NCBI RefSeq assembly: GCF_000003195.3
Contig: NC_012875.2
Location: forward strand, 12,366,174 to 12,430,173
Direction of reading: 5' to 3'
DNA length: 64,000 nt
DNA from: Sorghum bicolor
Taxonomy: Eukaryota > Streptophyta > Magnoliopsida > Poales > Poaceae
The notes under the pieces were generated by a model. That model was given only the letters and a program-made list of their open reading frames with translations, ran no database searches and was not told where the DNA came from. Positions 16,643 to 60,453 of the stretch are shown piece after piece. The translations under genes and the position numbers were made by a program. The number at the start of each line of letters is the position of its first letter. Within the stretch, counting starts at the first letter, position 1.

Positions 16643-16643
16643 G

Positions 16644-21960: not shown

Positions 21961-21969
21961 CTCTAGTGC

Positions 21970-33052: not shown

Positions 33053-33446
33053 AGGAAGGGGGGATAGGGCGGGCGCCCTGAATAGTAGGGTATGCGCCCC
33101 ACCCAGGTGGCTTCCCTGGCTACAACTTCTCTACTCCCTCCTTTGCTTAGTCTTTACGCAAAAAAAATGATTCATGGGTGGTGTTGGACAGTGGAAGTTG
33201 TCTGGTGAGTGGAGATATGTTGGTGGATCATATAATGTGATGAGATATATGTGAGGTATGGTGTATGACATGTGGGACCCAAGGGGTGTGGGTCATGCTT
33301 CTAGAAGGTTGATATAATTAAATATAATGCAGGAAAAACTATGAGGATTAAAACTTATTGAAAATGATCATGGAAAAATATTTTTGTGCCTCCACAATAA
33401 TTAATAAATATGGGTTGTCACACACCATAAATATTATTTATATGGG

Positions 33447-34161
33447 TGTTGCCATCGTTTTTGGACACGTACCCAGGATAGGTGGAGTATAGATCGGCAA
33501 GACAGGGCAGCAGTAACTGGTTTGCAGGAGAGTTGCCGATGAGGGCGGTTGCCGATGAAGAGACAGCCGAATGTGACTGAGTCCATGGGTGGTAATGTGT
33601 TTATGCCGATGGTCAGCATTAAGCTGTGCCGATGACTACGATGAGGGGGTTGCCGATGAGTCGGAAGAGGAACCTGAAGGTTGCCGATTGGCCTGCGGTG
33701 GTGTCCCAGTTTGTCACGGGAGAATAGTTTTATGTTTTCCTTAGTTGTTTAAGTTGTTTTGTATACGGATTCTGTTTAATTTGGAATTCGAGTTCTAGTC
33801 GTGTCTGATTGTAGCTCTTTGAGCAGGGTATAAAAGTAGACCCTAAGGCTTTGTAATTAGAGGCAATCAATCAATCGAATACAAGTTTCTACTCATATTC
33901 CAGCATCTACTTTTTCGACGACTTCGTCATATTTTCCTTTTTCATTACGAGTTCTTAGGAGTTCGTCGACTTAAGCTCGGCGTATTCTCAAGTTCCGCGT
34001 GAATACCTCTTGGCCGTGGCATCCGGGCGCATCGCTGTTGTCGGGACCAAAGTATTCGATTTATCACCTTTGCCGATAGTAAGGTCAAATCAGCTGGCAC
34101 GCCTTAACGTTTAAATCGGGTATTAGCTTTTTGTGTTTGCAGATCAACTTTTGCATCAACA
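33447..34161 (+). repeat. Element A 5' LTR
   Basis: Starts TGTTGCCATCG and ends TTGCATCAACA. TATAAAAG at 33839-33846 after GAGCAGGG is the likely promoter. The first 300 bp hold many GCCGAT hexamers. Confidence 0.9.
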
Positions 34162-34208
34162 CATCTTTTGGCATGCCCGGTGGGACCAGATTCAAGATCA
34201 AGATCGAC

Positions 34209-36316
34209 ATGTCGACTACTGCGTTTGATCAGGAGAATGTCATCCCTGTGACGGAAGCCAATCTCAAAGATGAGCAGAAGCAAGCTATTGCAAAAGCCAT
34301 GGAGGATTACAAGCAGCAATGTTTGAGGTCCTTCAGTATCAATAGGAGCGGCGAAGTGATCCAGAAGGAAGCACTGCCGATGCCTCGGCAGGTTACTTTT
34401 GAAGCCAATCCTGGTAAACTCCAAGACATGGTTGATAGTGCTATTAACCGTGCTCTGATCAATCAAGCTGGCGTGCTGTCCAATACGGTTTTCAATGCCG
34501 TGGCTAGAACATTCAAAGAAGGACAGTTGCCACCAGATTATGTGGGCCCTTCTCATAATCAGCCAGGATCACCGGTGGTCACAGCTCCGTCGGCTGCTAC
34601 AGCCGCTGCAGGCACACAAACTACCGTTCCTCCAAGCACGTTAGGAGTCACTAATGCACAATCTACACCGATGATGACTAATCCACCAACTTCAGACGGG
34701 CAGATCAAGCTTGCTACAGATCTATTGGCATCGGCAATGTCGGGATCGGTTCCTCCTCCTAACTGGTGGGGTTTTGGTATGCCCCCAGAGTTCACGCTGA
34801 AGACACCTGGTACGTCCCAGGCGGTTGATATGAGAGGCAAGGCTCCTATGGCATCGGCACCTCCAAATATGCCCATGAATCAAAGTCCCCAGTATACTAC
34901 AACCACTACTGCAAGGCCTTACACTAGGAATTCTCAAGCTCCAACGTTCCAGATGCCTAACGCATCGGCAGACTCAATGCTGATGCAACAGAGGTTTATG
35001 GCTCAGCCAGGGTATATCAATTCAATGATGATACCCAATTACTAGTCATCGGCAGGGCCTATGCCGATGAATGCTAATAGTGGAGGGCTTGGGCAGCAAG
35101 TCTTTCCGCAAATGTCCCAACAAAATCATCAGGCTACCGGGTTTCAACAAGTCCAGATCTATCCCGGATTCTAGAACCAAGGGTTGCCCAACCAGCTGAT
35201 GAATCTTGGGCAGCAGATCGGAAGACAGCAGATCGGCGGGCAACAGTTTGGTGGTCAGCAGATGGGTGGCCAAGTGACTAACCCGATATTCCATGCAGAT
35301 CGTACACCGCACAGACACGTGGAAGCTTACCAGCAGATGCCAGATCCGCAGCCGCCTCATCGGCAAGATGCCGATGCCTATTGGGCCGATAAGATTGCTG
35401 AAGTAATGAGAGACCAATTTGGGATAAAACCCAAAGTCAATACTTACTCTTATCGGACACCGTATCCTCCTGCATATTATTTAATCCCGCTTCCAAATCG
35501 GTACAAAGTGCCGGACTTTACTAAGTTTTCAAGGCAGGATGATACATCAACCATGGAGCATGTCAATAGGTTCATCATCCAATGCGGAGAAGCTGCTAAT
35601 AGGGACGAGTTAAGGGTTCACTTATTCTCGTCATCGTTGTCTGGATCGGCTTTCACTTGGTTATATCATTACCCCCCAACTCAGTGATTACTTGGGCCGA
35701 TCTGGAGAAGCAATTCCACAAATACTTCTTTTCTGGAGTCCATGAGAAGAAGATCACTGATTTGGTCAAATTGAAACAACGCAATGATGAATCAGTTGAA
35801 AGTTTTGTGCAGAGGATACGGGAAGTCAAGAACAAATGCTATAGTCTGGTTCCAGATGATCGGCAGCTAGCCGATTTGGCTTTCCAGGGCTTGTTGCCAC
35901 ATATCAGGGACAAGTACGCATCCCAGGAGTTTGAAAGCTTAAGTCATTTGGTGCAGAGGATTTCTGATCGAGATATCAAGCCTTTTGAACCCAAGAGAGC
36001 ATGGAATAAAAAGGTCTCCTTCGTTGATGAAGCAACAAGCTCAGACTCTGATGAGGAACCAGTCATCGGCTTAGCAGAATGGGTAAAAAATAAGAAGCCG
36101 ATGTCTTGTCCTTTTGGACACAAGGAGCCAGAGAAGTTCGCATTTGACATCACTAAGGACGATAGGATATTTGACTTTCTACTTCAGGAAGGTCAGATCG
36201 AATTGTCACCCAATCATGTGATCCCATCGGTTGAGGAATTGAAGAAGATGAAGTACTATAAATGGCACAATGCGACTTCTCACAACACCAATCAGTGCAA
36301 AGTTTTTAGGCAATAG
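34209..36316 (+). pseudogene. Element A gag
   Basis: Starts MSTTAFDQENVIPVTEANLK at ATG 34209, 47 bp after the LTR. An N-terminal helical part is followed by a long Pro/Ala/Gln-rich region with GGQQ repeats (about 35205-35275), then the capsid core (YWADKIAEVMRDQFG; VPDFTKFSRQDDTSTMEHV; WADLEKQFHKYFFSGVHEKK; SVESFVQRIREVKNKC) and a zinc-like end (KWHNATSHNTNQC). Breaks: TAG at 35043 and 35172, a one-base deletion near 35667 after SAFTW, and TAG at 36314. Several stops are CAG-to-TAG, as expected from cytosine deamination. Gag would build the particle. Confidence 0.85.
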
Positions 36317-37700
36317 CTGCAATCGGCTATAAAGTCTAGAAGGATCAAATTCGATAGCCCCAAAATTCAGAAGCCGATGAAGATTGATCAACACCCATTT
36401 CCAACAAACATGCTGGATGCTAAGGGGAAGGCCAAGGTCTTAACTTCGGAAGCAGCTGAAAGAAATGCATCGGTAGATCCCCAGCATCAGGTCACTACTG
36501 CCGATGCAAAAGGAAAAGGCATGATCCAGGAAGGGACCAACTCAGGAAGGCCTCCGTATTGTGATAACTCACAGAAGGCCTCGAGAAACTTGGCAGCAAC
36601 GTGAGGATCGGTATCGGCGCCAGCAAGAGGACTATCATTGGGAAGAAGAAAGACGCCGACAAGAATGGAATCGGCATAGGGATCACTGGAATGGTCCGTT
36701 CTTCATCCACTGTCGGGAGGAAAACATCAAGCTACCCACTGTCAGAGATTGTCCTGAGTGCAATGGTTATGATCGGTACGACAGATCTGATCGGCGCTAT
36801 CATGATGACGATCGGCGATTTAATAGGCCGATTAGGGGGAGAACGTCTGTTCACGATCGACTGGGGGGCAGGCTCAGTGTGCACGATACGCTCGGCAATC
36901 GTGTTGGATATTTTCCCAAGAACCGGGAAGAACTTGAAGAGATGGCTAATGCTCGAGTTCCTGATGAGTTCATATTTTGCAGGGATGCCAATACTTATCG
37001 GTAAGGCAGCGGCAACTTCCTCCATGGTGTCCAGAAGGGTTGACCAGGACACAGAAAAGAAGACTGCAGCGCGAAAGGCGAGAAGAGCTAGGCAAGGGCG
37101 AGAACTCTAGCCAGTCTGGGGATCAGCAACAATCAGATCCTCAGGGGAAAGGTCCATCGGCAGATGTCAACATGATATTTATGTTGCCGATGGAGTTCCT
37201 TGCACCATCCAGTGATGATGAGTTGGAGTTTTCCGACCAGATAGCTCAGTTGGCTCTAGATCCGATGATAGCCATCTTTGAAAAGCCTGCCGATAATGAA
37301 AGGCAACATCTTGAAGGCAATGATGCTAAAGGACTTTGAAGGCAATGTGTCTCCGTTTAAGGGAGCCATCTGTGTCGAGTTGACCATCGGCAGCAAAACC
37401 TTGCCGTCAACCTTCTTCATAATCAGTGGAAAAGGTGCTTATAACTTGCTGTTAGGGAGAGATTGGATTCATGCCAATTGTTGCATCCCGTCTACAATGC
37501 ACCAGTGCTTGGTCCAGTGGGTAGGTGACAAGATTGAGATTGTCCCAGGAGATTTTTCTTATGTCATTGCATCGGCAGAAGCAGACACCTATGAGAGAAC
37601 TAGGTGTATTTCAGGAGAAGTCTGGGAAAAGCATTTTCTCAAAGTTACCGACTATGAAATTCCACCGATCCAAGCAGTCGGTTCTGACGAAGAGTTTTAA
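36317..37700 (+). pseudogene. Element A gag end and protease, active site deleted
   Basis: Pieces in shifting frames cover a Arg-rich linker (VRDCPECNGYDRYDR; LPPWCPEGLTRTQKRRLQRE) and the protease region. Relative to element B, about 31 bp is missing near 37004 (between two ATCGG copies). About 170 bp is missing near 37312, which removes the ILIDGGAAINIMP active site. The C-terminal protease half (GKGAYNLLLGRDWIHANCCI) remains at 37330-37700. It ends in TAATG, overlapping the pol start by one base. Confidence 0.8.
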
Positions 37701-39397
37701 TGGATAGGTTCACCGATGATGGAAAATTAGGCCTGGGATTCACATCGGCCGATGATCTAGTAGAAGTAGACATAGGCAGTGGTGATAAACCTAGACCTAC
37801 TTTTATTAGTGCTAAGTTAAGTTCTGAGTGTAAGCAACAGTTAACTGATTTGTTAAAGGAATATAAAGATTGCTTTGCTTGGGATTATACTAAGATGCCT
37901 GGTTTGGACCGATCGATTGTTGAACATCGGTTGCCTATCAAGTCTGGATTTCGGCCACATCAGCAACCAGCTCGCCGATGTAATCCTAATATTCTTCCTG
38001 ATATTAAGGCTGAAATAACCAAACTGATTGAAGCTAAATTTATTCGGCAATGTCGGTATGCCGAGTGGATTTCCAATGTGGTTCCAGTCTACAAGAAAAA
38101 TGGGATGCTTCGGGTCTGCATTGATTTTAGGAATCTTAATAAAGCTACACAGATGGATGGTTACCAAATGCCAGTTGCCGATCTGCTAGTTGATGCTGTA
38201 GCCGGGCATCGGATTATTAGCTTTATGGATGGCAATGCAGGATACAATCAAATATTCATGGCTGAAGAAGATATTCCCAAGACTGCATTTAGATGTCCTG
38301 GTCATGTTGGGTTGTTTGAATGGATAGTCATGACCTTTGGCTTGAAGAATGCTGGTGCTACTTATCAGAGAGCCATGAATTTTATATTTCATGAGTTCAT
38401 CGGTAAGCTGGTGGAAATTTATATTGATGATGTGGTGGTTAAGTCTAGGGACTTCACAAAGCATCTTGCCGATTTGCGAAAGGTGTTGGAATGCACAAGG
38501 AAGCATGGTTTCAAGATGAATCCCAATAAATGTGCATTTGTTGTATCGGCAGGACAATTCCTTGGTTTCATGGTGCATCAGAGGGGGATTGAGATCAGTC
38601 GAAGATCCATTGATGCCATCAACAAAATAGTTGCTCCTAGTAACAAGACTGAGCTCCAGTCCTTGATCGGCAAGGTAAATTTTGTCAGGAGATTTATATC
38701 TAATTTATCTGGTAAATTTCATGCTTTCAGTCCTTTGCTTAAGTTGAAAGACGATCAAGAATTCGTTTGGGGGAAGGAACAACAATTGGCCTTCGATGAA
38801 ATCAAGAATTATTTGGTGAATCCTCCAGTCCTGATTCCACCTCAGCAAGGGAAGCCCTTCAGATTGTATTTGTCTACCGATGGGATGGTCATCGGTTCGG
38901 CTTTGATTCAGGAATTTGAAGGGAAGGAACGTGTGATTTACTATTTAAGCAGGAGGTTGATCGATGCTGAGACTAGGTATTCGGCTATTGAGAAGCTGTG
39001 TTTATGCTTGTATTTCTCCTGTGTCAAGTTGAGACATTATTTGTTATTGGCCGAATGCACTGTCATATGCAAAGATGATGTGGTCCGATACATGCTGTCT
39101 ATGCCGATCATGAGTGGCAGGATCGGTAACTGGATTTTGGCACTATCGGAATTTGACTTGTGTTATGAATCGGCTAAGGCGATTAAAGTACAGATTATGG
39201 CCGATTTTGTAACTCAACACTGTGGTACAGTGGAGGTCTTGGAAATTGTACCTTGGACGCTCTTCTTTGATGGATCTACGTGTGACCAGGGGGTAGGAAT
39301 CGACATATTATTAATTTCCCCTCAGGGAACGAAATATGAGTTTTCCTTGCCGATTGTTGCACGTCCGCGAATAATCAAGCTAAGTATCAAGCTTTGA
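37700..39397 (+). pseudogene. Element A reverse transcriptase and RNase H
   Basis: A 565-residue open frame from ATG 37700. RT fingers/palm include IEAKFIRQCRYAEWISNVV, LRVCIDFRNLNKAT and SFMDGNAGYNQIFMAEED. The catalytic YIDD is at residues 241-244. The first RNase H domain starts at about 394 (LSTDG). A second, RNase H-like domain starts at about 524 (FFDGSTCDQG), which is the dual arrangement of Tat elements. The frame is lost near 39365 (IVARPRIIK in place of a QAEYQA-containing stretch), so the second RNase H is broken. Confidence 0.85.
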
Positions 39398-40932
39398 TAA
39401 AGGGTTTGGAATTACTGAGGGAAGTTCATGCTGATGCTGTTGAAGCCTTCGGGGATTCTATGCTGGTTATAAATCAATTGGCTGGAAGCTATGAATGCCG
39501 AAGTGAAGTCCTCATAACTTATTACGAAAGGAGTATGCAACTATTAAAGGAATTCAAGGATTTCCGATTAGAGCATGTTCCTCGATTGCATAATGAAGAG
39601 GCCAATCGGTTGGCCCAGCATGCCTCGGGATATCAACCCATGATAAATGCAATATCGGCAACTGGGGCCGATGATTGGAGGAAAGAAATCATTGATTATT
39701 TAAAGGATCCATCTAAGAAAGTTGAGAGGCGCGTTCGGTTTCAAGCTACCAAGTATGTGCTCCTTGAAGGTGAATTGTATTACCGAACTATCGACGGGAT
39801 TCTTCTCAGATGCTTAGGTGATGATGAGGCTAAGGGTTTGATGGGAGAGATCCACGAGGGAGTATGTGGAGCACATCAGTCAGCTTTAAAGATGAAGTGG
39901 ATTATTAGAAGAAATGGGTATTATTGGCCGACCATACTTGAGGATTGCTTTAAGTATTTCAAAGGGTATCAAGGCTGTTAGAAATTTGGTAACATCCAAA
40001 GGGCACCTACATCAGCTATGAATCCTATCATCAAGCCTTGGCCGTTCCGGGGATGGGCTATTGATTTGATCGGCCAGATTTATCCGCCATCCAGCAAAGG
40101 ACATAAATTCAATCTAGTTGCCATCGATTATTTCACCAAATGGGTTGAAGCTATTCCTTTAAAGAAAGTTACATCGGCCAATATGATTGATTTTGTGAAA
40201 GAGCACATTATCTACCGATTTGGGATTCCTCAAACAATTACTACCGATCAGGGTACTATGTTCACATCAAGGGAGTTTGATGAATTTGCAATCGGTATGG
40301 GAATTAAAGTGTTAAATTCTTCTCCTTACTATGCTCAAGCTAATGGGCAGGCTGAGGCATCTAATAAAGGAATTATCAAGCTTATTAAACGGAAGATTGA
40401 AGAAAATACTAGGAGGTGGCACACATTGTTAAACGAAGCCTTATGGTCATACTGAATGGCTTGTCATGGATCGACCAAGGTTTCACCTTATCAGTTGGTG
40501 TATGGGCGTGATGCAGTGTTACCTTGGGAAATTAAGACTGGGTCTAGACGACTATCTTTTAAGGATCAATTGACTGCCGATGACTATGCTACTTTGATGA
40601 CAGACGAGTTGGATGATCTAGCAGGGCATCGGCTAAGGGCTTGGATGAGTATAGAAGAGAATAAGAAGAGAGTTGCCAGATGGTATGATAAGAAGGTAAA
40701 GGTTAAAGAATTTGCCGATGGAGACTTAGTATGGAAATTAATCTTCCCGATCGGGACTAAAAGTTCAAAATTTGGGAAGTGGTCTCCCAATTGGGAAGGT
40801 CCCTATCGGATAAGTCGATCGGCTCCTGGTAATGCCTATATTCTAGAAACTCTCGAAGGAGTTGAATTTCCCAGAGCATTAAATGGTAAATATTTAAAGA
40901 AGTATTACCCGTGCATATGGGTCGATGCATAA
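39394..40932 (+). pseudogene. Element A second RNase H end and integrase
   Basis: It continues the pol frame of element B in three pieces. 39394-39981 has DSMLVINQLAGSYECR and a linker, ending in TAG where B has Gln (GCQKFG). 40018-40455 is the integrase core with GWAIDLIGQ, TTDQGTMF and NGQAEASNKG, ending in TGA in place of Arg. 40456-40932 is the C-terminal part with GPYRISRSAPGNAYILETL. The three catalytic acids are present, but two stops disable it. Confidence 0.85.
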
Positions 40933-41090
40933 AAGTTTAAATGCCGATAACATTCCTATCGGCTGGATCAAAATGTATGTGGGGGTAGAACTCAGTGTTT
41001 TAGAAGGTGCCGACAACAGTCCTATCGGCTAGACCAAATATCAAGAAAGTTAGAAAGCAGAGAGGGGCAGGTATGTTGCCGATGAAGAGC

Positions 41091-41786
41091 TCACATGCTT
41101 AACAGCGCCTGGATCACCGATATAGCGCGCAGGCGGATTTGGTTGGCTGCTTCTATCTCTTTGGTGTCTTCATCGGCAGAGCCTTCCACCGGCTTCAACT
41201 TCTTCTTCATCTGCAGTGCTGTGCGAGCCTGGACATTGCGCTCTTGCTCAAGAAGCTTAATCGTTTCAGGCAGCTGGCTTTCTTCTTGCTGGGCTTGGGA
41301 CAAGGCTTCTTCTACTTGTTTAGGTTCTGCCAGCAGGGCTTCCCTTCTTGCCGATAAGTTAGAGATCTTTTGCTTCAGTGCCTCCCCTGAGGACTTTATG
41401 ATGCCGATGTCCTTGTGCTTCTCATCGGCAAGGAGCTTCACCTTCTTCATCTCCTCAGAGAGCTGGGCATGAGCAGCTCTATCGGCAAGACGTTGGGCAG
41501 CTCTCTGGTACTGCAGCTGACGGCTCTCTAGATGTGCAGCTTGGAAGAGGATTTCTTCCGCATCGGCAGGAATTTGGCCTCTAAGGGTCTTGAACAAGGC
41601 CTTCGCCGGGTCAGAGTCATCAACCAGTTGAGCTGTATCTTGATGAAGGAGGGCTGATAATTCTTCTAGCTTTGCCCTGATCTCTGCCGATGTAATTCCA
41701 ACTGCTCGAGAAGAACTTGCCTCTTCACCTTCATCTTCAGAGATGTCGATAGCAAAGGAGAACAAGCTGTCAGGAGAGTCCTGTTC
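41091..41786 (-). CDS. Exon 6 of the element A antisense gene (coiled coil)
   Basis: Open throughout: an acidic start (DISEDEGEEASSS), then long charged helices with heptads (KLEELSALLHQDT; AAQRLADRAAHAQLSEEMKK; PETIKLLEQERNVQ), ending VIQALLSM. It probably mediates oligomerisation. Preceded by a TTTTCAG acceptor. Confidence 0.75.
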   Translation of the reverse strand, partial: EQDSPDSLFSFAIDISEDEGEEASSSRAVGITSAEIRAKLEELSALLHQDTAQLVDDSDPAKALFKTLRGQIPADAEEILFQAAHLESRQLQYQRAAQRLADRAAHAQLSEEMKKVKLLADEKHKDIGIIKSSGEALKQKISNLSARREALLAEPKQVEEALSQAQQEESQLPETIKLLEQERNVQARTALQMKKKLKPVEGSADEDTKEIEAANQIRLRAISVIQALLSM

Positions 41787-42766
41787 CTGAAAAGGAAATA
41801 AAGTGGGTCATTCCATGGTCAAGTATTAATAGGTAATACTGATAGAGGCAGGGTGACTTACTTGTTTCAGGGCAATCTCTCGCCTCTGACTGGAAGATGC
41901 CGATGGGACTACAGGCTGATCGGCTGGGGGTGCCGATGTGACAATGTCAGCTGAAAAAAATAACAGAAATAGTTATAAGACAGAAAAGATAAGTTCATCG
42001 GCAATAATTTCATAAAAGTATGTTACCTTGAGGGGGAGCAGTGCTTGTCTGGATGGAAGAAACTACCGATGCTATCATGGGACCTGCCGGATCGGTAGTT
42101 TGTTCATGCACGTCAGTCGATATGTCTTCTGGCTGAGGTACTTCTAGTTGAGGCTCTTCTGGTTGGGGTTCTTCGACTTGTGGTGCTTCTTGTAGCTAAG
42201 AAGGGGATGGTACCTGCTGTGTGTGTGTTTCTAGAGAAGAGGGAGAAGAGTCTACCGTGATTGGAGATACTGGGGGAGGAGGAGGTGTTGCTACTCTTTG
42301 GCGCTTTGCTTGTGCCCTGGTACTCTTAGCACCCTTTCTCTTCGGTTGACTAGACTGGGGGGGCATTGACACTTTTGCCTCTGATCCTTGCCGATGCACC
42401 GGTGTTCTGACACAGAAAGGGAAATTTGTGAGTGCAAGTGCAATAGATATGAGAGTGAGATCAGTATGAAATTGTTTGAAAATGTACCTTGAACGCCTGT
42501 GCCAAAGCAGAGGCAGCTACCGATGGAGATATTTGAGTTCTCCTGGTGGTGACTTTCTTGAGGCATACGCCTCGATGCATGATGGCGGCCAGAGTGGGAG
42601 CGTTGTTGCCGATTGAGGAGATCGGACCTGATGGGAATAGATCAATCGGCTTGCCACTCCTGCTGACCGATGGAGGAGTGTCATCAACCTGCAACGTAAC
42701 ACAGAAAGTGAGTTACCGATGAAAATGAGAATAAAAGGATTAGAACATCGGTTTGGAGATACTTAC

Positions 42767-44224
42767 AGTGTTATCGGGGACTTTGTACTGGGGGTCGATC
42801 ATGCCACGGTACGTAAGAGCCGATTTGCAGAACAAATGCTCCTTCCATTCTTCCCACCACTGTTTGTACGCCTGAGTAATGAAGAGGGCTGGAACCCACT
42901 CTGAGAGGTCTGCATCTGTATCGGCATTCGGTGATAGCTGGGCTACTCGGATCCACTCAAGAAGGTTAGTGATGGCATCCCGGGGTTTTATCACATCGGC
43001 ATAACAGAGTGCAATCGGCAGCTGGCCGAAAGCTAGTTGACGGGCTAGTGCCGATGGGTTGTAAAACTCTTAGGTTTGGTTGGAGGTTTTCCCACTGCCA
43101 AAGAAGTTTATTGGTATAGCTCTAGGAGTAATCAGTGCTATCATCACATCGTGGTCCTTGATGAGAGAATCATTAAAGGGATGAAAGACCAAGGGAAACA
43201 TAGTGTGTGGATCTTCATAAGGCATCCACGCTCGCTGCTCTCGGATCAGGTCTTCATACAAGGTTTGGAAGAATCGGCTGACCTGGTCTGCGTTGCCACC
43301 TGTGCCAGGCAGAAATATGACAGCCTCGCCAAAGTTCAGAGGAGGGCGAGTTGCCGATTCTTCTTCATCCAGTTCATAGTCCTCGGCTATATCCCTGGGG
43401 AAGCGCTGTGCGAAGAGGTCAAACTCAGGACGCTTGTGCATATGGAGGCTGAGCCACATGTTGATAAACCACCAGGGACCCCCCAAGTTGCCGATGGGCT
43501 GGCCGAGTAGGAGTTTCCTGGTTACTTGATGAAGGAGGTGGTAAGCTGCACCAAGCAGGTATCGGCCGAGCGGAAATCGGCCACCATTGGCTAATCTTTC
43601 TGCTGCTACTAGGTAGACGGAAGTCGGTCCTGTCGATCGGCCACAAAATACAAATTTGTCCAACCACATGTTCAGGAAGCTGGTCTGTTCCTTTATGTTA
43701 ATAGGGCCTGCTCATTTGTATTTTTGGATGTATCCTGACCAACCGCCAATGGAGCGAGTTTCTACCTTAGCACTGGGTTTGGTTTCAAATAAGTGGGTGC
43801 TATCGGTAGAAGATACATCTAGGCCGGTGAGCATAACCACATCGGCAAGTGTAGGGGAAGTAGGGCCGTGGCCAAAGACAAAGGCATTGAGTGTGTCTGA
43901 CCAGAAATATGATGCAGCTATCAATAGTGACTCGTTCCTATGCATATCGGCAATGGACAACCTGATGCATTGGTTCAGTTTTCTCTCGCCCCACTGGACT
44001 TCGTTTGAGTGGCTAGCTCTCAAAAACCAATCCTTCCATCCCACGGTAGGACTGGGCCAGGAACGAAAGGTATCCTTCCACAGATCTAGAGAAAAGTTCT
44101 CGGCTCTAAAGGGGATTCTGTTTGTTTCTGCGTTGATTAAATCGGTGGGATCTGGGTTCCCTAACGAACCAAGACATTGAAGATGTGGCTGATCGGTGGG
44201 GATGACAATTTTATTTGACAGATC
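42767..44224 (-). pseudogene. Exon 2 of the element A antisense gene (plant mobile domain)
   Basis: It encodes the PMD core: GWKDWFLRASHSNEVQWGER, FVFGHGPTSPTLADVVMLTG, GGRFPLGRYLLGAAYHLLH and NLGGPWWFINMWLSLHMHK. It ends with FITQAYKQWWEEWKEHLF. PMD (aminotransferase-like plant mobile domain) occurs in transposon proteins and in a few host gene-silencing factors such as the MAIL family. Two stops interrupt it. Confidence 0.85.
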
Positions 44225-44520
44225 CTAATGGGTTTTGGGGTAAAAAGAAAAAAAAGAAAAAAACAAAAGGGGAATGTTCAGTAAAATGAATTGCGGATGA
44301 ACGAGGATATGGTAAAAGTACAAAAGGTAGGGTGATGAACTGACCTCGGGGACAACAAAGTTGATGGCCATCTCCTCGCGGAGAAGATGTTCGAAGACTT
44401 TGAGGTTGGTGAAGAAAGGCCTTCGTCAGAGTTCTTGAGGCTCTCGGGCAGCGCCGCCAACAGGAAAGTGGAGTTGGGGCTGTAGAATGATGCGATGGGG
44501 AAGGAGTACCCGAGAAGGAC

Positions 44521-44530
44521 CTATTTATAG
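44521..44530 (-). promoter_or_regulatory. TATA box of the element A antisense gene
   Basis: CTATAAATAG on the minus strand, 150 bp upstream of the ATG at 44371. It is conserved at the same place in copy B. Confidence 0.7.
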
Positions 44531-44673
44531 GACAAAACGAGCAAGGGAAAATATGACTTATCTCTTCGTCGTATACGTGAAACCCGAGAGTACTCAGGTA
44601 GATATGGTAACTGTTCGCACGGTAATCAAGGGATTGTGCAGGCGATTTGACAGGAAGCGGTCATAATCTAGAG

Positions 44674-44883
44674 ATATTTCAGTGTGCGGGATCTCCTGGT
44701 CGGTTCATCGGCAGCGCCTTGTAACGGTAACATTGCCGATGGACGAATAAAGTGGAGATGTCCGTTTGAGAGATTGAGATATTTCGCTGTGTGAGATTTC
44801 CTGATCAGTCTATCGGCAGTTCCTTGTAACGGTAATATTGCCGATGGGCGATTAAAGTGGGGATGTCCGTTTGGGAGGAATTC
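44674..44883. repeat. Two tandem 105 bp repeats upstream of the antisense promoter (A)
   Basis: Units 44674-44778 and 44779-44883, each with CCTTGTAACGGTAA and ATTGCCGATGG. They lie between the antisense TATA box and the 3' LTR. Confidence 0.85.
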
Positions 44884-45013
44884 GAGGAATCTGCGGAAGA
44901 ATTGGGCCAAGGTCGTTCAGATTTAGGTTGTCGGTTGCCAAATTGGGAGAATTAATTGTGGAAAGGCATCATTACTGCAGATAATTTCGGAGCATTAATG
45001 ATTTCATACTCCG

Positions 45014-45028
45014 AAATTGGGGGGCATG
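45014..45028 (+). other. Element A polypurine tract
   Basis: AAATTGGGGGGCATG directly precedes the 3' LTR. Confidence 0.8.
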
Positions 45029-45742
45029 TGTTGACATCGTTTTTAGACATGTACCCAGGATAGGTGGAGTATAGATCGGCAAGACAGGGCAGCAGTAACT
45101 GGTTTGCAGGAGAGTTGCTGATGAGTGCGGTTGCCGATGAAGAGACAGCCGAATGTGACTGAGTCCATGGGTGGTGATGTGTTTATGCCGATGGTCAGCA
45201 TAACCTGTGCCGATGACTACGATGAGGGGGCTGTCGATGAGTCGGAAGAGGAATCTGAAGGTTGCTGATTGGCCTGCGGTGGTGTCCCAGTTTGTCACTG
45301 GAGAATAGTTTTATGTTTTCGTTAGTTGTTTAAGTTGTTTTGTATACGGATTCTGTTTAATTTGGAATTCGAGTTCTAGTCGTGTCTGATTGTAGCTCTT
45401 TGAGCAGGGTATAAAAGTAGACCCTAAGGCTTTGTAATTAGAGGCAATCAATCAATCGAATACAAGTTTCTACTCATATTCCAACATCTACTTTTTCGAC
45501 GACTTCGTCATATTTTCCTTTTTCATTACGAGTTCTTAGGAGTTCGTCAACTTAAGCTCGGCGTATTCTGAAGTTCCGCATGAATACCTCTTGGCCGTGG
45601 TATCCAGGCGCATCGCTGTTGTCGGGACCAAAGTATTCGAGTTATCACCTTTGTCGATAGTAAGGTCAAATCGGCTGGCACGCCTTAACGTTTAAATCAG
45701 GTATTAGCCCTTTGTGTTTGCAGATCAACTTTTGCATGAACA
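45029..45742 (+). repeat. Element A 3' LTR
   Basis: 714 bp, TGTTGACATCG...TTGCATGAACA, TATAAAAG at 45410-45417. Followed by the ATGGG target copy. Confidence 0.9.
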
Positions 45743-45898
45743 ATGGGGCTCTTCATTATTATAATAATGCTATGAATAAATATGGATAATGCAAGAATTC
45801 AATATGAGAGAATTTTAATGATGCGGATAAATACCGATTTACCTCCTGGCGAGGGTTTGAGATTTTTTTAGGTCCCCCAAGCTAGACCTACAAATCTT

Positions 45899-52148: not shown

Positions 52149-52862
52149 TATTGACACCGTTTTTGGACACGTATCCAGGACCAGTAGAGTGCGGATCGGC
52201 AAGATGGGGCAACAGTAACTGGTCTGCAAAAGACTTGCCGATGAGGATGGTTGCCGATGAAGGGACGGTTGAATGTGACTAAGTCCATACTGGTGATGCG
52301 TTCATACCGATGGTTAGCGTTAACTTTTGCTGATGGCTATGATGAGGAGCCTGCCGATGATACAGAAGGAAGGCATGAAGGTTGCCGATTGGTCCGTGGT
52401 GGTGTCCCAGTTCGTCACGAGGAGATAGTTTTGTGTTTTCCTTAGTTATTTAAATCGTTTTGTGTACGGATTCTGTTTAATTTGGAATTCGAGTCCTAGT
52501 CATGTCTGATTGTAGCTCTTTGAGCAGGGTATAAATGTAGACCCTAGGGACTTGTAATTGATATCTATCAATCAATCAAATACAAGTTTTTACTCATATT
52601 CCAGCATCTACTTTTTCGACGACTTCGTCATATTTTCCTTTTTCATTACAAGTTCTTAAGAGTTCGTCGACTTAAGTTTGGCATATTCTCAAGTTCCACG
52701 TGAATACCTCTTGGCCGTGGCATCCGGGCGCATCGCTGTTGTCGGGACCAAAGTATTCGAGTTATTACCTTTGCCGATAGAAAGGTCAAATCGGCTGGCA
52801 CGCCTTAACGTTTGAATCGGGTATTAGCCCTTTGTGTTTGCAGATCAGCTTTTGCATCAACA
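52149..52862 (+). repeat. Element B 5' LTR
   Basis: 714 bp. The first bases are TATTGACACC, so the canonical TG start has mutated to TA. TATAAATG at 52530-52537 is the likely promoter. The primer site TGGCACGCCCAGTGGGAC follows at about 52870. Confidence 0.9.
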
Positions 52863-52909
52863 CATCTTTTGGCACGCCCAGTGGGACAAAAGTCAAAATC
52901 AAGATCAAC

Positions 52910-54949
52910 ATGTCGACTACCGAGTTCGACTTGGAGAACATCATCCCAGTGACAGAAGCTAGCCTCAAGGATGAGCAGAAGCAAGCTATTGCGAATGCTA
53001 TGGAGGATTACAAGCAACAATGTCTCAAGGCCTTCAGCATAAACAGGAGTGGCGAAGTGATCCAGAAAGAAGCACTGCCTGCACCTCGGCAGGTTACCTT
53101 TGACGCCAATCCTGGTAAACTCCAAGACATGGTCGATAGTGCTATCAATTGTGCCTTGATCAACCAAGCTGGTGTGCTGTCCAATACAGTTTTCAATGCC
53201 GTGGCTAGGACTTTCAAAGAAGGACAATTGCCACCGAATTATGTGGGCCCTGTCTATCATCAGCCAAGATCGCCAGTGGTGACGGCTCCATCGGCTGCTA
53301 CGGCCGCTGCAGGCACGGAAACTACTGTTCCTCCAAGCACGCTAGGAGTCTCTAATGGGCAATCCACGCCGATGCCGTCCAATCCATCAACATCGGATGA
53401 GTCGATCAAGCTTACTACAGATCTATTGGCATCAGCAATGTCAGGATCCGCTCCTCCTAATTGGTGGGGTTTTGGTATGCCCCCGGAATACTTGTTGAAG
53501 ACACCTGGCACATCTTAGGCGGCTGATATGAGAGGCAAGGCTCCTATGGCATCGGCACCTCCAAATATGCCGATGAATCAGAGTCTCTAGTATACTACAA
53601 CTACTACTGCCAGGCCTTACACTGGGAACTCTCAAGCTCCAACGTTCTAGATGCCTAATGCATCGGCAGATTCAATGCCGACGCAACAGAGGTTTATGAC
53701 TCAGCCAGGGTATGTCAATTCAATGATGACGCCCAATTACCAGTAATCGGCAGGACCTATGCCGATGAATCCTAATAGTGGATACCTTGAGCACCAGGTC
53801 TTTCCACAAATGCCCTAGCAGAATCATCAGGTTATAGGGTTTCAACAAGGCCAGATCTACCCTGGATTCCAGAACCAAGGGGTGGTCAATCAGCCGATGA
53901 ATCTCGGCCAGCAGGTTGGTGGTCAGCAGATCGGTGGTCAGCAATTTGGTGGTCAACAACTTGGTGGTCAGCAGGTTGGCGGCCAAATGATTAACCCAAT
54001 GTTCCATGCGGATCGCGCGCCGCATAGACACGTGGAGGCATATCAGCAAATCCCGGAGCCGCAACCGCCTCATCGGCAAGATGCCGATGCTTATTGGGCC
54101 GATAAGATTGCTGAAGTAATGAGAGATCAATTTGGGATAAAACCCAAAGTCAATACTTACTCTTATCGGACACCATATCCTCCTGTATACGATTTAATCC
54201 CACTTCCAAATCGGTACAAGGTACCAGATTTCACTAAGTTTTCTGGACAGGATGATACATCAACCATGGAACACGTCAACAGGTTCATCATTCAGTGTGG
54301 AGAAGCTGCTAACAGGGACGAGTTAAGAGTTTGCCTGTCCTCGTCATCATTATCGGGATCGGCTTTCACTTGGTTTATATCATTATCTCCTAACTAAGTG
54401 ATTACTTGGGCCGATCTAGAGAAGCAATTCCACAAATACTTCTTTTCTGGAGTCCATGAGAAGAAGATCATAGATTTAGTCAAATTGAGGCAACACAATG
54501 ATGAATCGGTTGAAAGTTTTGTGCAGAGGATACGAGAAGTCAAGAACAAATGCTGTAGTCTGGTTTTGGATGATCGGCAGCTAGCCGATTTGGCTTTCCA
54601 GGGTTTGTTGCCACACATCAGGGATATGTATGCATCTCAAGAGTTTGAAAGCTTAAGTCATTTGGTGCAGAGAGTTTCTGATCCAGATATCAAGCCTTTT
54701 GAGCCCAAGAGAGCATGGAACAAGAAGGTATCATTTGTGGATGAAGCAGCAAGCTCGGACTCTGAGGAGGAACCAGTCTTCGGCTTGGCAGAATGGGTAA
54801 AAAATAAGAAGCCAATGTCTTGTCCTTTTGGGCACAAAGAGCCAGAGAAGTTCGCATTTGACATCACCAAAGCCGATAGGATATTTGACTTTCTACTTCA
54901 GGAGGGCCAGATCAAATTGTCGCCCAATCATGTAATTCCATCGACTTAA
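52910..54949 (+). pseudogene. Element B gag
   Basis: Starts MSTTEFDLENIIPVTEASLK at ATG 52910. It has the same plan as in A, with one more GGQQ repeat (about 53910-53990). Stops: TAG at 53516, 53588 and 53648, TAA at 53745, and a further TAA at 54395 where A keeps Ser. The capsid core (VPDFTKFSGQDDTSTMEHVN; WADLEKQFHKYFFSGVHEKK) is otherwise well kept. At the end of the first Gag frame A has TAG and B has TAA two codons later, so the two copies were inactivated independently. Confidence 0.85.
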
Positions 54950-55927
54950 GAATTAAAGAAGATGAAGTACTGCAAATGGCACAATGCAACTTCTCACAGC
55001 ACCAATGAGTGCAAAGTTTTTAGACAACAGCTGCAAGGCTATAGAATCTGGGAGGATCAAATTTGACAGCTCCAAAACCCAGAAGCTGATGAAGATTGAT
55101 CAACACCCTTTCCCAACAAATATGTTGGATGCTAAGGGAAAGGCCAAGGTCTTAACATCGGAAGCAGCTGAAAGAAGTGCATCGGTAGATCCTCAGCATC
55201 AGATCACTACTGCCGATGCAAAAGGAAAAGGCTTGATCCAGGAGGGAACTAACTCAGGAAGGCCTCCCCGATCTGGTACTGTAATAACTCACAGAAGGCC
55301 TCGGGAGACTTGGCAGCAACGTGAGGATCGGTATCGGTATCGGCACCAGCAGGAGGGCTATCGTCGGGAAGAGGAAAGACGCTGACAAGAATGGAATCGG
55401 CACAGAGATCACTGGAATTGTCCGTTCTTCATCTATTGTTGGGAGGAAAATATCAAGCTTCCTACTGTTAGAGACTGCCCATAATGTAATGGTTATGATC
55501 GGTATGACAGATCAAATCGGCAGTATCAAGACAATAACCGCCGGTTTTATAGGCCAATTAGGGGGAGAGCGTCCGTTCATGATCGACGGGGGGCAGGCTC
55601 AGTGTGCACGACAGGCTTGGTGATCGTGTTGAATATTTTCCCAGGAACTAGGAAGAGCTTGAAGAAATGGCTAATGCACGGGTTCCCGATGAGTTCATAT
55701 TCTGCAGGGATGCCAATACATATCGGATGGAATCAAGAGAGAATCGTCACCCATCGGTAAGGCAGCAACAACTTCCTCCATGGTGTCCAGAGGGATTGAC
55801 TAGGACACAGAAAAGGAGGCTGCAGCGCGAAAGACGAGAAGAGTTGAACAAGGGCGAGAACTCTGGCCAGCTTGGGGATCAGTAACAATCAGATCCTAAG
55901 GGAAAAGGTCCATCGGCAGACGTCAAC
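54950..55927 (+). pseudogene. Element B gag C-terminal linker
   Basis: Zinc-like CKWHNATSHSTNECKVF, then Arg-rich and charged linker sequence, in shifting frames. 55667-55885 reads LPPWCPEGLTRTQKRRLQRE and ends at a TAA. It links capsid to protease. Confidence 0.75.
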
Positions 55928-56590
55928 ATGGTATTTATATTGCCGATGGAATTCCTTGCGCCGTCCAGTGATGATGAGTTGGAGTTTTCTGACCAAATAG
56001 CTCAGTTGGCTCTGGATGCGATGACAGCCATCTTCGAAAAGTCTGCCGATGATGAAAGGCGACATCTTAAGGCTCTGTTTGTCAAAGGAAGAGTGGATGG
56101 TCAGCCGATAACCAAAATTTTAATTGATGGTGGAGCTGCTATCAATATCATGCCATATGCAGTGTATCGGAAGCTTGGAAAGGGGGATCAGGATTTAACC
56201 AAGACCGATATGATGCTCAAAGACTTTGTGGGGAATGTGTCTCCAGTTACGGGAACAATATGTGTTGAATTAACTATCGTCAGCAAGACCTTGCCAACAA
56301 CCTTCTTCATGATCAGTGGAAAAGGTGCTTACAATCTGTTGCTGGGGAGAGATTGGATTCATGCCAATTGTTGTATCCCGTCTACAATGCACCGGTGCTT
56401 GGTTCAGTGGGTAGGTGACAAGATTGAAATTGTCCCGGGAGACTCTTCATATGTCATTGCATCGGCAGAGACAGACACCTATGAAAGGACTAGGTGTATT
56501 TCAGGAGAAGTTTGGGAAAAGGATTTTCTCAAAGTTGCTGATTACGAAATTCCACCGATCCAAGCAGTCGGTTCTGACGAAGGTTTTTAA
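55928..56590 (+). CDS. Element B protease region
   Basis: Open for 220 residues. The active site ILIDGGAAINIMPY has Asp at residue 67 of this frame (D-G-G-A in place of the common D-S/T-G-A). GKGAYNLLLGRDWIHANCCI follows. The frame has the region that is deleted in A. It ends in TAATG, so its stop shares one base with the pol start, and pol lies in the -1 frame; both copies keep this. The upstream start is arbitrary: in a live element it would be part of gag-pro. Confidence 0.75.
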   Translation: MVFILPMEFLAPSSDDELEFSDQIAQLALDAMTAIFEKSADDERRHLKALFVKGRVDGQPITKILIDGGAAINIMPYAVYRKLGKGDQDLTKTDMMLKDFVGNVSPVTGTICVELTIVSKTLPTTFFMISGKGAYNLLLGRDWIHANCCIPSTMHRCLVQWVGDKIEIVPGDSSYVIASAETDTYERTRCISGEVWEKDFLKVADYEIPPIQAVGSDEGF

Positions 56591-57800
56591 TGGATAGGTT
56601 CGCCGATGATGGAAAATTAGGCCAGGGATTCACATCGGCTGATGATTTAGTAGAAGTAGATATAGGTAGTGGTGATAAGCCTAGACCTACTTTTATTAGT
56701 GCTAAGTTAAATTCTGAGTGTAAGCAGCAGTTGACTGATTTGTTAATGGAATATAAAGATTGCTTTGGTTGGAATTATACTGAGATGCCTGGTTTAGACC
56801 GATCGATTGTTGAACATCGGTTGCCTATCAAGTCTGGATTTTGGCCACATCAACAGCCAGCTTGCCGATGTAATCCTAATATTCTTCCTAATATTAAGGC
56901 CGAAATAACCAAACTTATTGAAGCTAAATTTATTCGGCAGTGTCGGTATGCCGAATGGATTTCCAATGTTGTTCTGGTTTACAAGAAAAATGGGAAGCTT
57001 CGTGTCTGCATTGATTTCAGAAATCTTAGTAAAGCTACACCGATGGATGGCTACCCAATGCCAGTTGCCGATCTGCTGGTTGACGCTGTGGCTGGGCATC
57101 GGATTATCAGCTTTATGGATGGCAATGCAGGGTACAATCAAATATTCATGGCTGAAGAGGACATTCCAAAGACTGCATTTAGATGTCCTGGTCATGTTGG
57201 GTTGTTTGAATGGATAGTCATGACCTTTGGCTTGAAGAATGCTGGTGCTACTTATCAGAGGGCTATGAATTTTATTTTTCATGAGTTCATTGGCAAATTG
57301 GTGGAAATCTATATTGATGATGTGGTAGTTAAGTCTAGAAACTTCACAAAGCATCTTGCCGATTTACAAAAGGTGTTGGAATGCACAAGGAAGCATGGTT
57401 TAAAGATGAATCCCAACAAGTGTGCATTTGGTGTATCGGCAGGGCAATTTCTTGGCTTCATGGTGCATCAAAGGGGAATCGAAATTAGTCGGAGATCCAT
57501 TGATGCTATCAACAAAATAGTTGCCCCTACCAACAAGACTGAGCTCCAATCCTTGATCGGCAAGGTAAATTTTATCAGGAGGTTTATCTCTAATTTATCT
57601 CGTAAAATTCGTGCTTTCAGTCCTTTACTTAAGTTGAAGGCCGATCAAGAGTTTGTCTAGGGGAAAGAACAACAATTGGCCTTCGATGAAATCAAGAATT
57701 ATTTGGTAAATCCTCCAGTTCTGATTCCACCTCAGCAAGGGAAGCCCTTTAGATTGTATTTGTCTACCGATGGGATGGTCATCGGTTCGGCTTTAATTCA
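56590..57800 (+). pseudogene. Element B reverse transcriptase and truncated first RNase H
   Basis: RT is open from ATG 56590 to TAG 57658-57660 (Trp codon in A), with YIDD at residues 241-244, LRVCIDFRNLSKAT and SFMDGNAGYNQIFMAEED. The following RNase H starts normally (RLYLSTDGMVIGSALIQEF) but then jumps from GAATTT to TGGCACTATC. About 220 bp present in A is missing, including most of RNase H 1. Confidence 0.85.
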
Positions 57801-58529
57801 AGAATTTTGGCACTATCAGAATTCGATTTGCGTTATGAATCGGCTAAGGCGGTTAAGGGACAAATTATGGCCGATTTTGTAACTCAGCATTGCGGTACAG
57901 TGGAGACTTTGGAGATTGTACCTTGGACGCTCTTCTTTGATGGATCAACGTGTGACCGGGGGGCAGGAATCGGCATCGTGTTAATTTCCCCTCGGGGAAG
58001 GAAGTATGAATTCTCCTTACCGATTGTTGCCATGTCAACAAATAATCAAGCTGAGTATCAAGCTCTGATAAAGGGGTTGGAATTACTAAGTGATGTTCAT
58101 GCTGATGTTGTTGAAATCTTCAGGGATTCTATGGTAGTTATAAATCAATTGGCTGGAAGCTACGAATGTCGAAGTGAAGTCCTCATAACTTATCACGAAA
58201 GGAGTATGCAACTATTAAAGGAATTCAAGGATTTCCGATTAGAGCATGTTTCTCGATTGCATAATGAAGAGGCTAATCGGTTGGCTCAGCATGCCTCGGG
58301 TTATCAGCCCATGATAAATGCAGTATCGGCAATCAGTGCCGATGATTGGAGAAAAGAAATCATTAATTATTTAAAGGATCCATCTAAGAAAGTAGAGAGG
58401 CGTGTTCGGTTTCAAGCCACCAAATATTTGCTCCTCGAAGAGGAATTATATTATCGAACTATTGATGGGGTTCTTCTCAAGTGTTTAGGTGATGATGAGG
58501 CTAGAAGTTTGATGGGAGAGATCCATTAA
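57801..58529 (+). CDS. Element B second RNase H domain and linker
   Basis: Open for 240 residues. RNase H-like acids are visible: FFDGST, NNQAEYQALIKGLELL and RDSMVVINQL. The linker to integrase follows. TAA at 58527 replaces the Glu codon of A. It shows the dual RNase H arrangement of the Tat lineage. Confidence 0.75.
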   Translation, partial: RILALSEFDLRYESAKAVKGQIMADFVTQHCGTVETLEIVPWTLFFDGSTCDRGAGIGIVLISPRGRKYEFSLPIVAMSTNNQAEYQALIKGLELLSDVHADVVEIFRDSMVVINQLAGSYECRSEVLITYHERSMQLLKEFKDFRLEHVSRLHNEEANRLAQHASGYQPMINAVSAISADDWRKEIINYLKDPSKKVERRVRFQATKYLLLEEELYYRTIDGVLLKCLGDDEARSLMGEIH

Positions 58530-58562
58530 GGAGTATGTGGAGCACATCAGTCGACCTTTAAG

Positions 58563-59603: not shown

Positions 59604-59757
59604 AAGTTTAAGTGCCGATAACATTCCTATTGGCTGATCAAAATGTATCTGGGGCCAGACTTAATGTTTTAAAAGGTGCCGATAACAGTCCTATTGGCTA
59701 GACCAACACATTAGGGGTGTTCAAAAGAAAGGAGCAAGTATGTTGCCGACGAAGGGT

Positions 59758-60453
59758 TCACATGTTCAACAGCGCTTGGATCACCGATATAGCACGCAGG
59801 CGGATTTGGTTGGCTGCTTCTATCTCTTTGATGTCTTCATCGGTAGAGCGTTCCGCCGGCTTCAGCTTCTTCTTCATCTGCAGCGCTCTACGGCCATGGA
59901 CGTTTCGCTCCTGTTCAAGGAGTTTGATCGCCTCAGGCAGCTGGCTTTCATCTTGTTGGGCTTGGGACAAGGCTTCTTCTACCTGTTTGAGTTCTGCCAA
60001 CATGGCTTCCCTTCTTGCCGATAGATCAGAAATCTTTTGCTTCAATGCATCTCCTGAGGACTTTAGGGTGCCGATGTTCTTGTGCTTCTCATCAGTAAGG
60101 AGCTTCACCTTCATCATCTCCTCAGAGAGCTGAGCATGAGCAGCTCTATCGGCAAGACGTTGGGCAGCCCTCTGATACTGCAGCTGACGGCTCTCTAGGT
60201 GTGCAGCTTGGAAAAGGGTTTCTTCAGCATCGGTAGGAATTTGGCCTCTGAGGGTCTTGAACAAAGCCTTGGCCGGGTCAGAGTCATCAACCAGTTGAGC
60301 TGTGTCTTGATGAAGGAGGGCTGATAATTCTTCTAGCTTTGCCCTGATCTCTGCCGATGTAATTCCAACTGCTCGGGAAGAACTTGTCTCCTCGCCTTCA
60401 TCTTCAGAGATGTCGATGGCAAAGGAGAACAAGCTGCCAGGAGAGTCCTGTTC
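59758..60453 (-). CDS. Exon 6 of the element B antisense gene (coiled coil)
   Basis: 231 residues, open. Acidic start (DISEDEGEETSSS), then heptad-rich helices as in A, ending VIQALLNM. Confidence 0.75.
   Translation of the reverse strand, partial: EQDSPGSLFSFAIDISEDEGEETSSSRAVGITSAEIRAKLEELSALLHQDTAQLVDDSDPAKALFKTLRGQIPTDAEETLFQAAHLESRQLQYQRAAQRLADRAAHAQLSEEMMKVKLLTDEKHKNIGTLKSSGDALKQKISDLSARREAMLAELKQVEEALSQAQQDESQLPEAIKLLEQERNVHGRRALQMKKKLKPAERSTDEDIKEIEAANQIRLRAISVIQALLNM

What the first reader, a model, noticed from the sequence alone, without database searches (positions are those of the whole stretch)
41091..44530. Spliced antisense gene with its own promoter in a Tat retrotransposon (copy A)
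Between integrase and the 3' LTR the opposite strand reads a complete gene plan: TATA box, first ATG, six coding exons with GT/AG borders and consistent phases, encoding PMD + disordered region + coiled coil. Open reading frames alone would give only unrelated fragments; the exon structure becomes clear by comparing with copy B. Antisense extra ORFs are known in the Tat lineage, but a multi-exon PMD/coiled-coil product transcribed against pol is a candidate regulator of the element or of host silencing.
Basis: partly seen in the sequence, partly recalled or inferred. Interest (0 to 1): 0.88.

Follow-up and report, generated by a model that had tools for sequence, protein, structure and literature searches.

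The report
Spliced backward gene in plant retrotransposon
A plant jumping gene carries, on its opposite strand, a real multi-exon gene whose protein is predicted to fold like a known DNA-binding anti-silencing protein, and a short DNA word is sown through the whole element, which makes a long-open question about such backward genes testable.

Summary
Between integrase and the 3' LTR of a Tat-type LTR retrotransposon the minus strand carries a TATA box, an ATG and six exons. Copy A is broken and copy B has lost one splice donor, but across 40 other copies (B plus 39 from the genome) GT is kept in 188 of 200 donors and AG in 198 of 200 acceptors. Exons evolve as coding (dN/dS 0.14). One database protein joins exons 4, 5 and 6 at the predicted borders. 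Antisense ORFs in Tat elements and PMD in Ogre elements are in print; I did not find this exon structure.

The parts
33442..33446 (.). 5-bp target-site duplication ATGGG (left)
   Evidence: matches 45743-45747
33447..34161 (+). 5' LTR of copy A, 8 GCCGAT/ATCGGC motifs
   Evidence: 3.6% divergent from the 3' LTR; motifs
34162..40932 (+). gag-pol region of copy A (gag, RT, RNase H, second RNase H, integrase), 48 motifs
   Evidence: Pfam Retrotrans_gag, RVT_1, RT_RNaseH, RVT_3 above cut-off, Integrase_H2C2 just below it (23.0 vs 25.5 bits); rve above cut-off in copy B; motifs
44671..44877 (-). two 105-bp tandem units upstream of the antisense TATA box, each with one inverted motif pair 28 bp apart
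   Evidence: a like array in copy B
44522..44529 (-). TATAAATA box of the antisense gene
   Evidence: retained in 38 of 40 other copies
44345..44371 (-). exon 1 (ATG, 9 codons)
   Evidence: ATG retained in 39 of 40
44225..44344 (-). intron 1 (120 nt)
   Evidence: GT 40/40, AG 40/40 in other copies
42767..44224 (-). exon 2, plant mobile domain (two in-frame stops in copy A)
   Evidence: PF10536; dN/dS 0.114
42689..42766 (-). intron 2 (78 nt)
   Evidence: GT 36/40, AG 40/40; 39 of 43 unspliced database ORFs read Val right after exon 2
42488..42688 (-). exon 3
   Evidence: dN/dS 0.073
42407..42487 (-). intron 3 (81 nt)
   Evidence: GT 36/40, AG 40/40
42027..42406 (-). exon 4, low-complexity linker with a bipartite NLS-like cluster (one-base shift in copy A)
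   Evidence: dN/dS 0.267
41951..42026 (-). intron 4 (76 nt)
   Evidence: GT 38/40, AG 39/40; absent from P0162
41862..41950 (-). exon 5
   Evidence: P0162 and gene models P0002, P0069 join it to exon 6 at this border; dN/dS 0.187
41787..41861 (-). intron 5 (75 nt)
   Evidence: GT 38/40, AG 39/40; absent from P0162
41091..41786 (-). exon 6, heptad-repeat C-terminus and stop; its homologues are annotated DUF1409
   Evidence: dN/dS 0.149; 756 homologues at E<=1e-5, the 120 listed carry PF07197; the window's own DUF1409 match is below cut-off (12.6 vs 29.2 bits in A, none listed in B)
45029..45742 (+). 3' LTR of copy A, 5 motifs
45743..45747 (.). target-site duplication ATGGG (right)
52149..52862 (+). 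5' LTR of copy B
   Evidence: 12.9% divergent from copy A 5' LTR
59758..63060 (-). antisense gene of copy B: exons 63060-63034, 62916-61459, 61364-61164, 61084-60724, 60647-60559, 60453-59758; intron-2 donor not GT
63208..63215 (-). TATAAATA box of copy B
33447..45742 (.). element A as carrier of 96 GCCGAT/ATCGGC (47 and 49 by strand)
52149..64000 (.). element B (3' LTR cut by the window end) with 84 GCCGAT/ATCGGC

Best explanation
A Tat-type LTR retrotransposon carries a real protein-coding gene on its antisense strand, read from its own TATA promoter near the 3' LTR and spliced from six exons. Because the genomic RNA is the opposite strand, the introns are unreadable there and survive retrotransposition. 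The protein has a PMD with the predicted fold of VANC21's DNA-binding region, a basic NLS-like linker and a heptad-repeat tail that may dimerise it. Most likely it enters the nucleus, binds the GCCGAT (RCCGAT) words sown through its own element, and counters silencing of that element, as VANC does for VANDAL transposons. Shown here: gene structure, coding constraint, splice-site conservation, motif enrichment and conservation. Computed but weaker: the fold. Inferred: expression, nuclear entry, that this protein reads this motif, and anti-silencing. My estimates: gene real and spliced 0.95; DNA-binding 0.6; GCCGAT is its site 0.5; anti-silencing 0.4. The confidence below is for the whole chain.
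Confidence: 0.4

Rival explanations
1. The gene is real and spliced and its product nuclear, but it acts in the opposite or another sense: a MAIN/MAIL1-like chromatin or silencing factor, a copy-number brake, or a plain transcription regulator of the LTR (as HTLV HBZ, itself a spliced antisense product, does; recalled).
For: Host PMD proteins MAIN and MAIL1 act in silencing, and 25 of 26 genes commonly downregulated in their mutants share a promoter motif (passages of PMC7156037). Motifs lie in the LTRs and in the antisense promoter.
Against: A brake on its own element is not expected to be kept under pol-like constraint (argument, not test). Motifs over the whole body rather than the LTR alone fit region-wide chromatin action better than a promoter switch.
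Confidence: 0.23
2. The sown motif is read by a host factor, such as an AP2/ERF DREB-type protein (known core RCCGAC, recalled), and the antisense protein does something unrelated, such as nuclear import or RNA export.
For: RCCGAT resembles the DRE core in five of six bases (recalled). ACCGAT is also enriched (30 vs 4.2 in A) and is the commonest altered form (10).
Against: The last base is T, not C: GCCGAC is not among the 12 commonest CpG hexamers of A and ACCGAC has 6. The motif is in gag-pol far from the promoter and on both strands alike. TRP28 loci of the same genome (L054-L056) show other top hexamers.
Confidence: 0.21
3. The antisense RNA, not the protein, is the functional product (dsRNA or siRNA control), and the reading frame is incidental.
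For: Proposed for such antisense ORFs in general (PMC7264820, passages).
Against: Coding constraint in the exons, splice-site conservation, and homologous proteins in other grasses.
Confidence: 0.05
4. The GCCGAT excess is a mutational or codon-usage by-product rather than a functional motif.
For: It contains CpG, so local lack of methylation could slow its loss.
Against: It exceeds a permutation that keeps protein and codon usage in four coding sets, is kept better than CpG-free hexamers (75% vs 49% A-B; 79% vs 36% in non-coding parts of 40 copies), and is at or below expectation in the rest of the window (8 found, about 9.7 expected).
Confidence: 0.08
5. No gene: chance open fragments.
For: Copy A is interrupted and copy B lacks one donor.
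Confidence: 0.01

Closest known systems
Antisense extra ORFs of Tat-lineage retrotransposons (maize Grande gene23, rice RIRE2, Retand; PMC7264820, PMC11963269)
   Same: Gene between pol and 3' LTR, antisense; own promoter and nuclear product in Grande (passages).
   Different: Those surveys describe ORFs, mostly TRP28 in Retand; the word 'intron' has 0 occurrences in both main texts. Here six exons and a PMD.
PMD-A clade proteins of gypsy elements (PMC5418596) and PMD in 57% of Ogre elements (PMC6317226)
   Same: PF10536 domain in an extra ORF of a Ty3/gypsy element.
   Different: Orientation, exon structure, a fold relation to VANC21 and a sown motif were not in the passages I read.
VANC anti-silencing proteins of VANDAL transposons (PMC5735166, PMC10398659; structure 9lnj)
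   Same: Predicted fold; encoded by a plant transposon; short motif repeated in the element; multi-exon gene.
   Different: No sequence similarity found; carrier is an LTR retrotransposon; gene antisense; motif dispersed through coding DNA as well; no anti-silencing shown.
HTLV-1 HBZ (recalled; named in PMC11963269)
   Same: Spliced antisense gene of a retroelement, nuclear, coiled-coil product (splicing and coiled coil recalled).
   Different: Unrelated protein; antisense promoter inside the 3' LTR in HTLV, outside the LTR here.

Membership tests
Tat-lineage Ty3/gypsy LTR retrotransposon | LTRs, target-site duplication, gag-pol with RT-RNase H-integrase order | tested here: met
   (integrase above cut-off only in copy B)
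Tat-lineage Ty3/gypsy LTR retrotransposon | second RNase H domain between RNase H and integrase | tested here: met
   RVT_3, 37.4 bits (cut-off 21.6), in 39394-39981 between RT_RNaseH and Integrase_H2C2; that it is the aRH of Tat elements is inferred
Tat-lineage Ty3/gypsy LTR retrotransposon | RT phylogeny (Ogre, Retand or other sub-lineage) | not tested
   no tree was built
Plant mobile domain (PF10536) proteins | match above the curated cut-off | tested here: met
   58.5 bits vs 34.9 in copy B exon 2; all 58 rows of A2 match at E<=1
Antisense accessory gene with own promoter (Grande gene23 type) | antisense coding region between pol and 3' LTR | tested here: met
Antisense accessory gene with own promoter (Grande gene23 type) | demonstrated antisense transcription | not testable with these tools
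   only a conserved TATA box
VANC-type anti-silencing factor | fold of the VANC21 DNA-binding region | tested here: inconclusive
VANC-type anti-silencing factor | sequence homology to VANC | tested here: inconclusive
   profile A2 finds no VANC21 chain at E<=10; distant homology not excluded
VANC-type anti-silencing factor | short motif accumulated in its own element | tested here: met
   that this protein binds it is untested
VANC-type anti-silencing factor | motif in tandem repeats of non-coding DNA | tested here: not met
   mostly dispersed and also in coding DNA; the antisense promoter has a 105-bp tandem pair
[quoted passage not shown]
   needs plants

The most novel reading that the evidence does not exclude
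Antisense PMD proteins of Tat retrotransposons are sequence-specific anti-silencing factors with a VANC fold. Each element family carries a self-address, a short CG-containing word written through its whole body including its coding sequence, which its own antisense protein reads, and the antisense orientation lets the gene keep introns through retrotransposition. Host silencing factors MAIN and MAIL1 would then be relatives of a transposon anti-silencing fold.
Probability: 0.33. Interest if true: 0.94.

Novelty: new variant of a known kind. Interest (0 to 1): 0.85.

Why it matters
PMD is called a domain of unknown function (PMC8616336, passages), and the roles of antisense ORFs in Tat elements are called unknown in both surveys consulted. 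A predicted fold link to a plant transposon anti-silencing protein solved on its DNA, together with a motif sown through the element at DNA level, turns both into one binding experiment. If right, an LTR retrotransposon family with many copies (40 and 84 matches scored among 4601 and 5281 loose first-look candidates in one genome) would carry its own self-recognising anti-silencing system, and the host silencing factors with the same domain would have a traceable origin.

Tried and rejected
Led nowhere: the one viral-contig scan found no relative; no PDB sequence relative; BFVD gave nothing at E<=0.001; NCBIfam gave only weak SMC matches in exon 6. Chains absent from the VIA lists are not evidence of absence. 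A first NLS pattern missed the window copies; a second pattern found them and 6 of the 240 database proteins, most of which do not reach exon 4.

Considered and rejected: other elements of the window as carriers of the motif. A copia ORF has none, and the rest of the window 8. Two other segments reach high hexamer scores, but from a TA simple repeat (z 32) and a tandem array (z 22). A plan to compare a second PMD subfamily failed: the locus fetched with P0056 as lead (L058) is the window's own family, so it is not independent evidence. TRP28 loci L054-L056 (one family) show other top hexamers (CGACCA, CCGAGC), but part of that is a 70-bp tandem array, so co-evolution of motif and protein is only suggested. 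One sense-strand frame of exon 2 also gave a low ratio (0.21) but has 21 stops. Counts over copies are not independent, since copies share ancestry.

I therefore lowered DNA-binding from 0.65 to 0.6, the whole chain from 0.42 to 0.40 and the novel case from 0.35 to 0.33. My note gave 14 of 15 ORFs with Gln before exon 6; the right count is 13 of 14 unspliced ORFs, and Gln may be CAA as well as CAG, so the DNA count (AG in 39 of 40) is the test.

Full report
What is there. Copy A is an LTR retrotransposon with LTRs 33447-34161 and 45029-45742 (3.6% divergent) and ATGGG target-site duplications on both sides. Its + strand ORFs match gag, RT, RNase H and a second RNase H (RVT_3) above the Pfam cut-offs and the integrase zinc-binding domain just below (23.0 vs 25.5 bits); the integrase core is above cut-off in copy B. 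The second RNase H suggests the Tat lineage (aRH of Tat: PMC6317226, passages; equating RVT_3 with it is my inference, and no RT tree was built). Copy B (52149 to the window end) is a sister, 86-91% identical over its blocks. The window lies in an unnamed 709-Mb assembly; size and ten large contigs fit Sorghum bicolor (recalled, not tested).

The antisense gene. On the minus strand between integrase and 3' LTR, copy A shows TATAAATA at 44529, an ATG at 44371 with no ATG in the estimated leader, and six exons of 27, 1458, 201, 380, 89 and 696 nt with ten GT/AG borders. Copy A is broken: two in-frame stops in exon 2 and a one-base shift in exon 4 that 37 of 40 other copies do not share. Copy B is open in all exons but has lost the GT of intron 2. 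Neither copy alone proves the model; the family does.

Tests of the gene model. A vs B: dN/dS 0.143 over 939 codons (by exon 0.50 on nine codons, then 0.11, 0.07, 0.27, 0.19, 0.15); exons 2 and 6 in shifted frames give 1.1-3.8. The same two copies give 0.084, 0.087 and 0.188 in three pol stretches, so the antisense gene is constrained about as pol is. LTRs differ 3.6% within A and 12.9% between A and B, so most of that selection predates these insertions. From the genome I compared B and 39 fetched copies (40 in all; the search scored 40 of 4601 first-look candidates, the window copy A included) pairwise with A. GT is kept in 188 of 200 donors and AG in 198 of 200 acceptors, against 66% and 80% for other intronic GT and AG; 26 of 40 keep all ten. 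Introns carry 148 indels in 430 bases (25 multiples of three); exons 28 in 2851 (14 multiples of three), after setting aside 37 that are A's own shift. TATAAATA is kept in 38 and ATG in 39 of 40. In up to 250 random pairs of the 780 possible, median dN/dS is 0.11, 0.18 and 0.08 for exons 2, 3 and 6, and 1.28-2.81 in shifted frames. Many copies carry stops (29 of 40 in exon 2, 4 in exon 3, 21 in exon 6), as expected of old insertions.

Independent sequences. Of 120 PMD proteins listed (127 found), 43 unspliced ORFs read past the exon-2 end (14 gene models were set aside): 39 continue with Val (GTN) and 37 with Val-Ser; the commonest residue makes up 0.91 and 0.93 of these two positions and 0.21-0.45 of the next eleven. 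Of 14 unspliced ORFs whose exon-6 start fitted my pattern and that read into it, 13 have Gln just before it. P0162, a 306-residue protein from a 1457-base JGI contig, joins exons 4, 5 and 6 exactly at the predicted borders: either spliced RNA or a copy of it. Gene models named as Miscanthus (P0001, P0002), Saccharum (P0069) and Oryza (P0003, P0005-P0009 and others) carry PMD, many with DUF1409; P0002 and P0069 have the same exon 5/6 border and P0001 skips exon 5. These are predictions by others. Against expression: in a rice survey only 6 of 253 DUF1409 loci had full-length cDNA evidence; its authors thought that for such rice-specific domains this need not mean lack of transcription (PMC2084198, passages).

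The protein. Exon 2 matches PMD (58.5 bits in B, cut-off 34.9; 29.0 and 33.6, below it, in two pieces of A). Exon 4 of B is 62% P,S,T,Q,E,K and holds KRK-x9-KRQR, as do A, P0001 and P0002, with looser versions in four other proteins. Exon 6 scores as a heptad repeat (0 of 500 shuffles reach B, 6 of 500 A). The 120 listed of its 756 homologues are annotated DUF1409, though the window's own match is below cut-off.

The sown motif. GCCGAT/ATCGGC occurs 96 times in A (4.6 expected; 47 and 49 by strand) and 84 times in B (4.4 expected), in LTRs, gag-pol and the antisense region, and 8 times in the remaining 39.8 kb. It is the top hexamer in each of seven 3.2-kb slices of A and B (z 16-23), while nine control slices of the window top out at z 3.8-6.9; two segments not among those controls reach z 32 and 22 through a TA repeat and a tandem array. 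In coding sequence it exceeds a permutation keeping protein and codon usage: sense A 26 vs 4.6, sense B 31 vs 6.7, antisense A 22 vs 4.5, antisense B 24 vs 4.7; a copia ORF gives 0 vs 0.9. Between A and B 126 of 168 motif cells are kept (75%), other CpG hexamers 182 of 540 (34%), CpG-free hexamers 49%. In 40 copies of the antisense region the density is 6.1-8.8 per kb; 756 of 1014 exon and 262 of 333 non-coding motif cells are kept, against 38-39% for other CpG hexamers and 49% and 36% for CpG-free ones. Altered sites are most often ACCGAT (10). Strand symmetry argues for a duplex-DNA site rather than an RNA signal. Neighbouring motifs under 60 bp apart are often outward-inverted: 18 of 37 pairs in A and 14 of 29 in B, but 10 of 27 in L058; each 105-bp promoter unit of A holds one, as a dimer might read. 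A and B share ancestry, so these are not independent counts.

How it probably works. VANC21 binds a 9-base motif repeated in its own transposon, and its expression removes methylation there (PMC5735166, PMC10398659, passages). The MAIL1 authors (for MULE-captured PMDs) and a review have already suggested that transposon-encoded PMD proteins might act against silencing (passages). The fold and the motif make that concrete: the spliced antisense protein would find its own element by GCCGAT and keep it open. The antisense position explains why introns persist: the genomic RNA carries them as reverse complement. Shown: structure, constraint, motif. Not shown: RNA, protein, binding, demethylation.

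What is known and what is new. Known: antisense ORFs of Tat elements, own promoter and nuclear product in Grande (PMC7264820, passages), TRP28 in 97% of Retand clusters (PMC11963269, abstract, passages and section 11 part 1), PMD in 57% of Ogre elements (PMC6317226, passages; orientation not seen), PMD-A clades in gypsy elements (PMC5418596, passages), DUF1409 in Oryza gypsy elements (PMC9289625, passages). In what I read I saw no intron described for an antisense ORF; PMC7264820 itself asks that antisense and spliced transcripts be looked for. My searches did not show the exon structure, a PMD-VANC fold relation or the motif. They cover open papers only; Steinbauerova 2011 and Gomez-Orte 2013 were not looked up, so priority is not established.

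Noticed in passing
window 8147-11883: Seven tandem units of about 590 nt with TTGCCG/TGCCGA/GCCGAG/CCGAGT hexamers strongly enriched; recalls sub-terminal repeats of grass CACTA elements (recalled, not tested).
   Followed up: no
window 15402-23221: Young copia-type element: 1241-bp direct repeats 99.8% identical around a 1317-aa ORF with gag, rve and RVT_2.
   Followed up: partly
window 28141-29617 and 47080-48551: A 1.48-kb repeat at 95% identity, each copy near gypsy-type gag, RT or integrase ORFs on the minus strand.
   Followed up: no
window 2762-2930: Isolated fragment of the LTR end of the window family, 88-90% identical.
   Followed up: no
L054-L056: TRP28 (PF04195) loci of the same genome have other top hexamers (CGACCA, CCGAGC), in L055 partly in a 70-bp tandem unit holding an inverted pair: perhaps each Tat family has its own word.
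   Followed up: partly
P0002 (Miscanthus gene model): PMD protein model running into an integrase domain (rve), probably an annotation fused across a nested insertion.
   Followed up: no
P0001 against P0002 and P0069: P0001 (labelled isoform X2) lacks exon 5 exactly, which hints at alternative splicing of the antisense gene.
   Followed up: no
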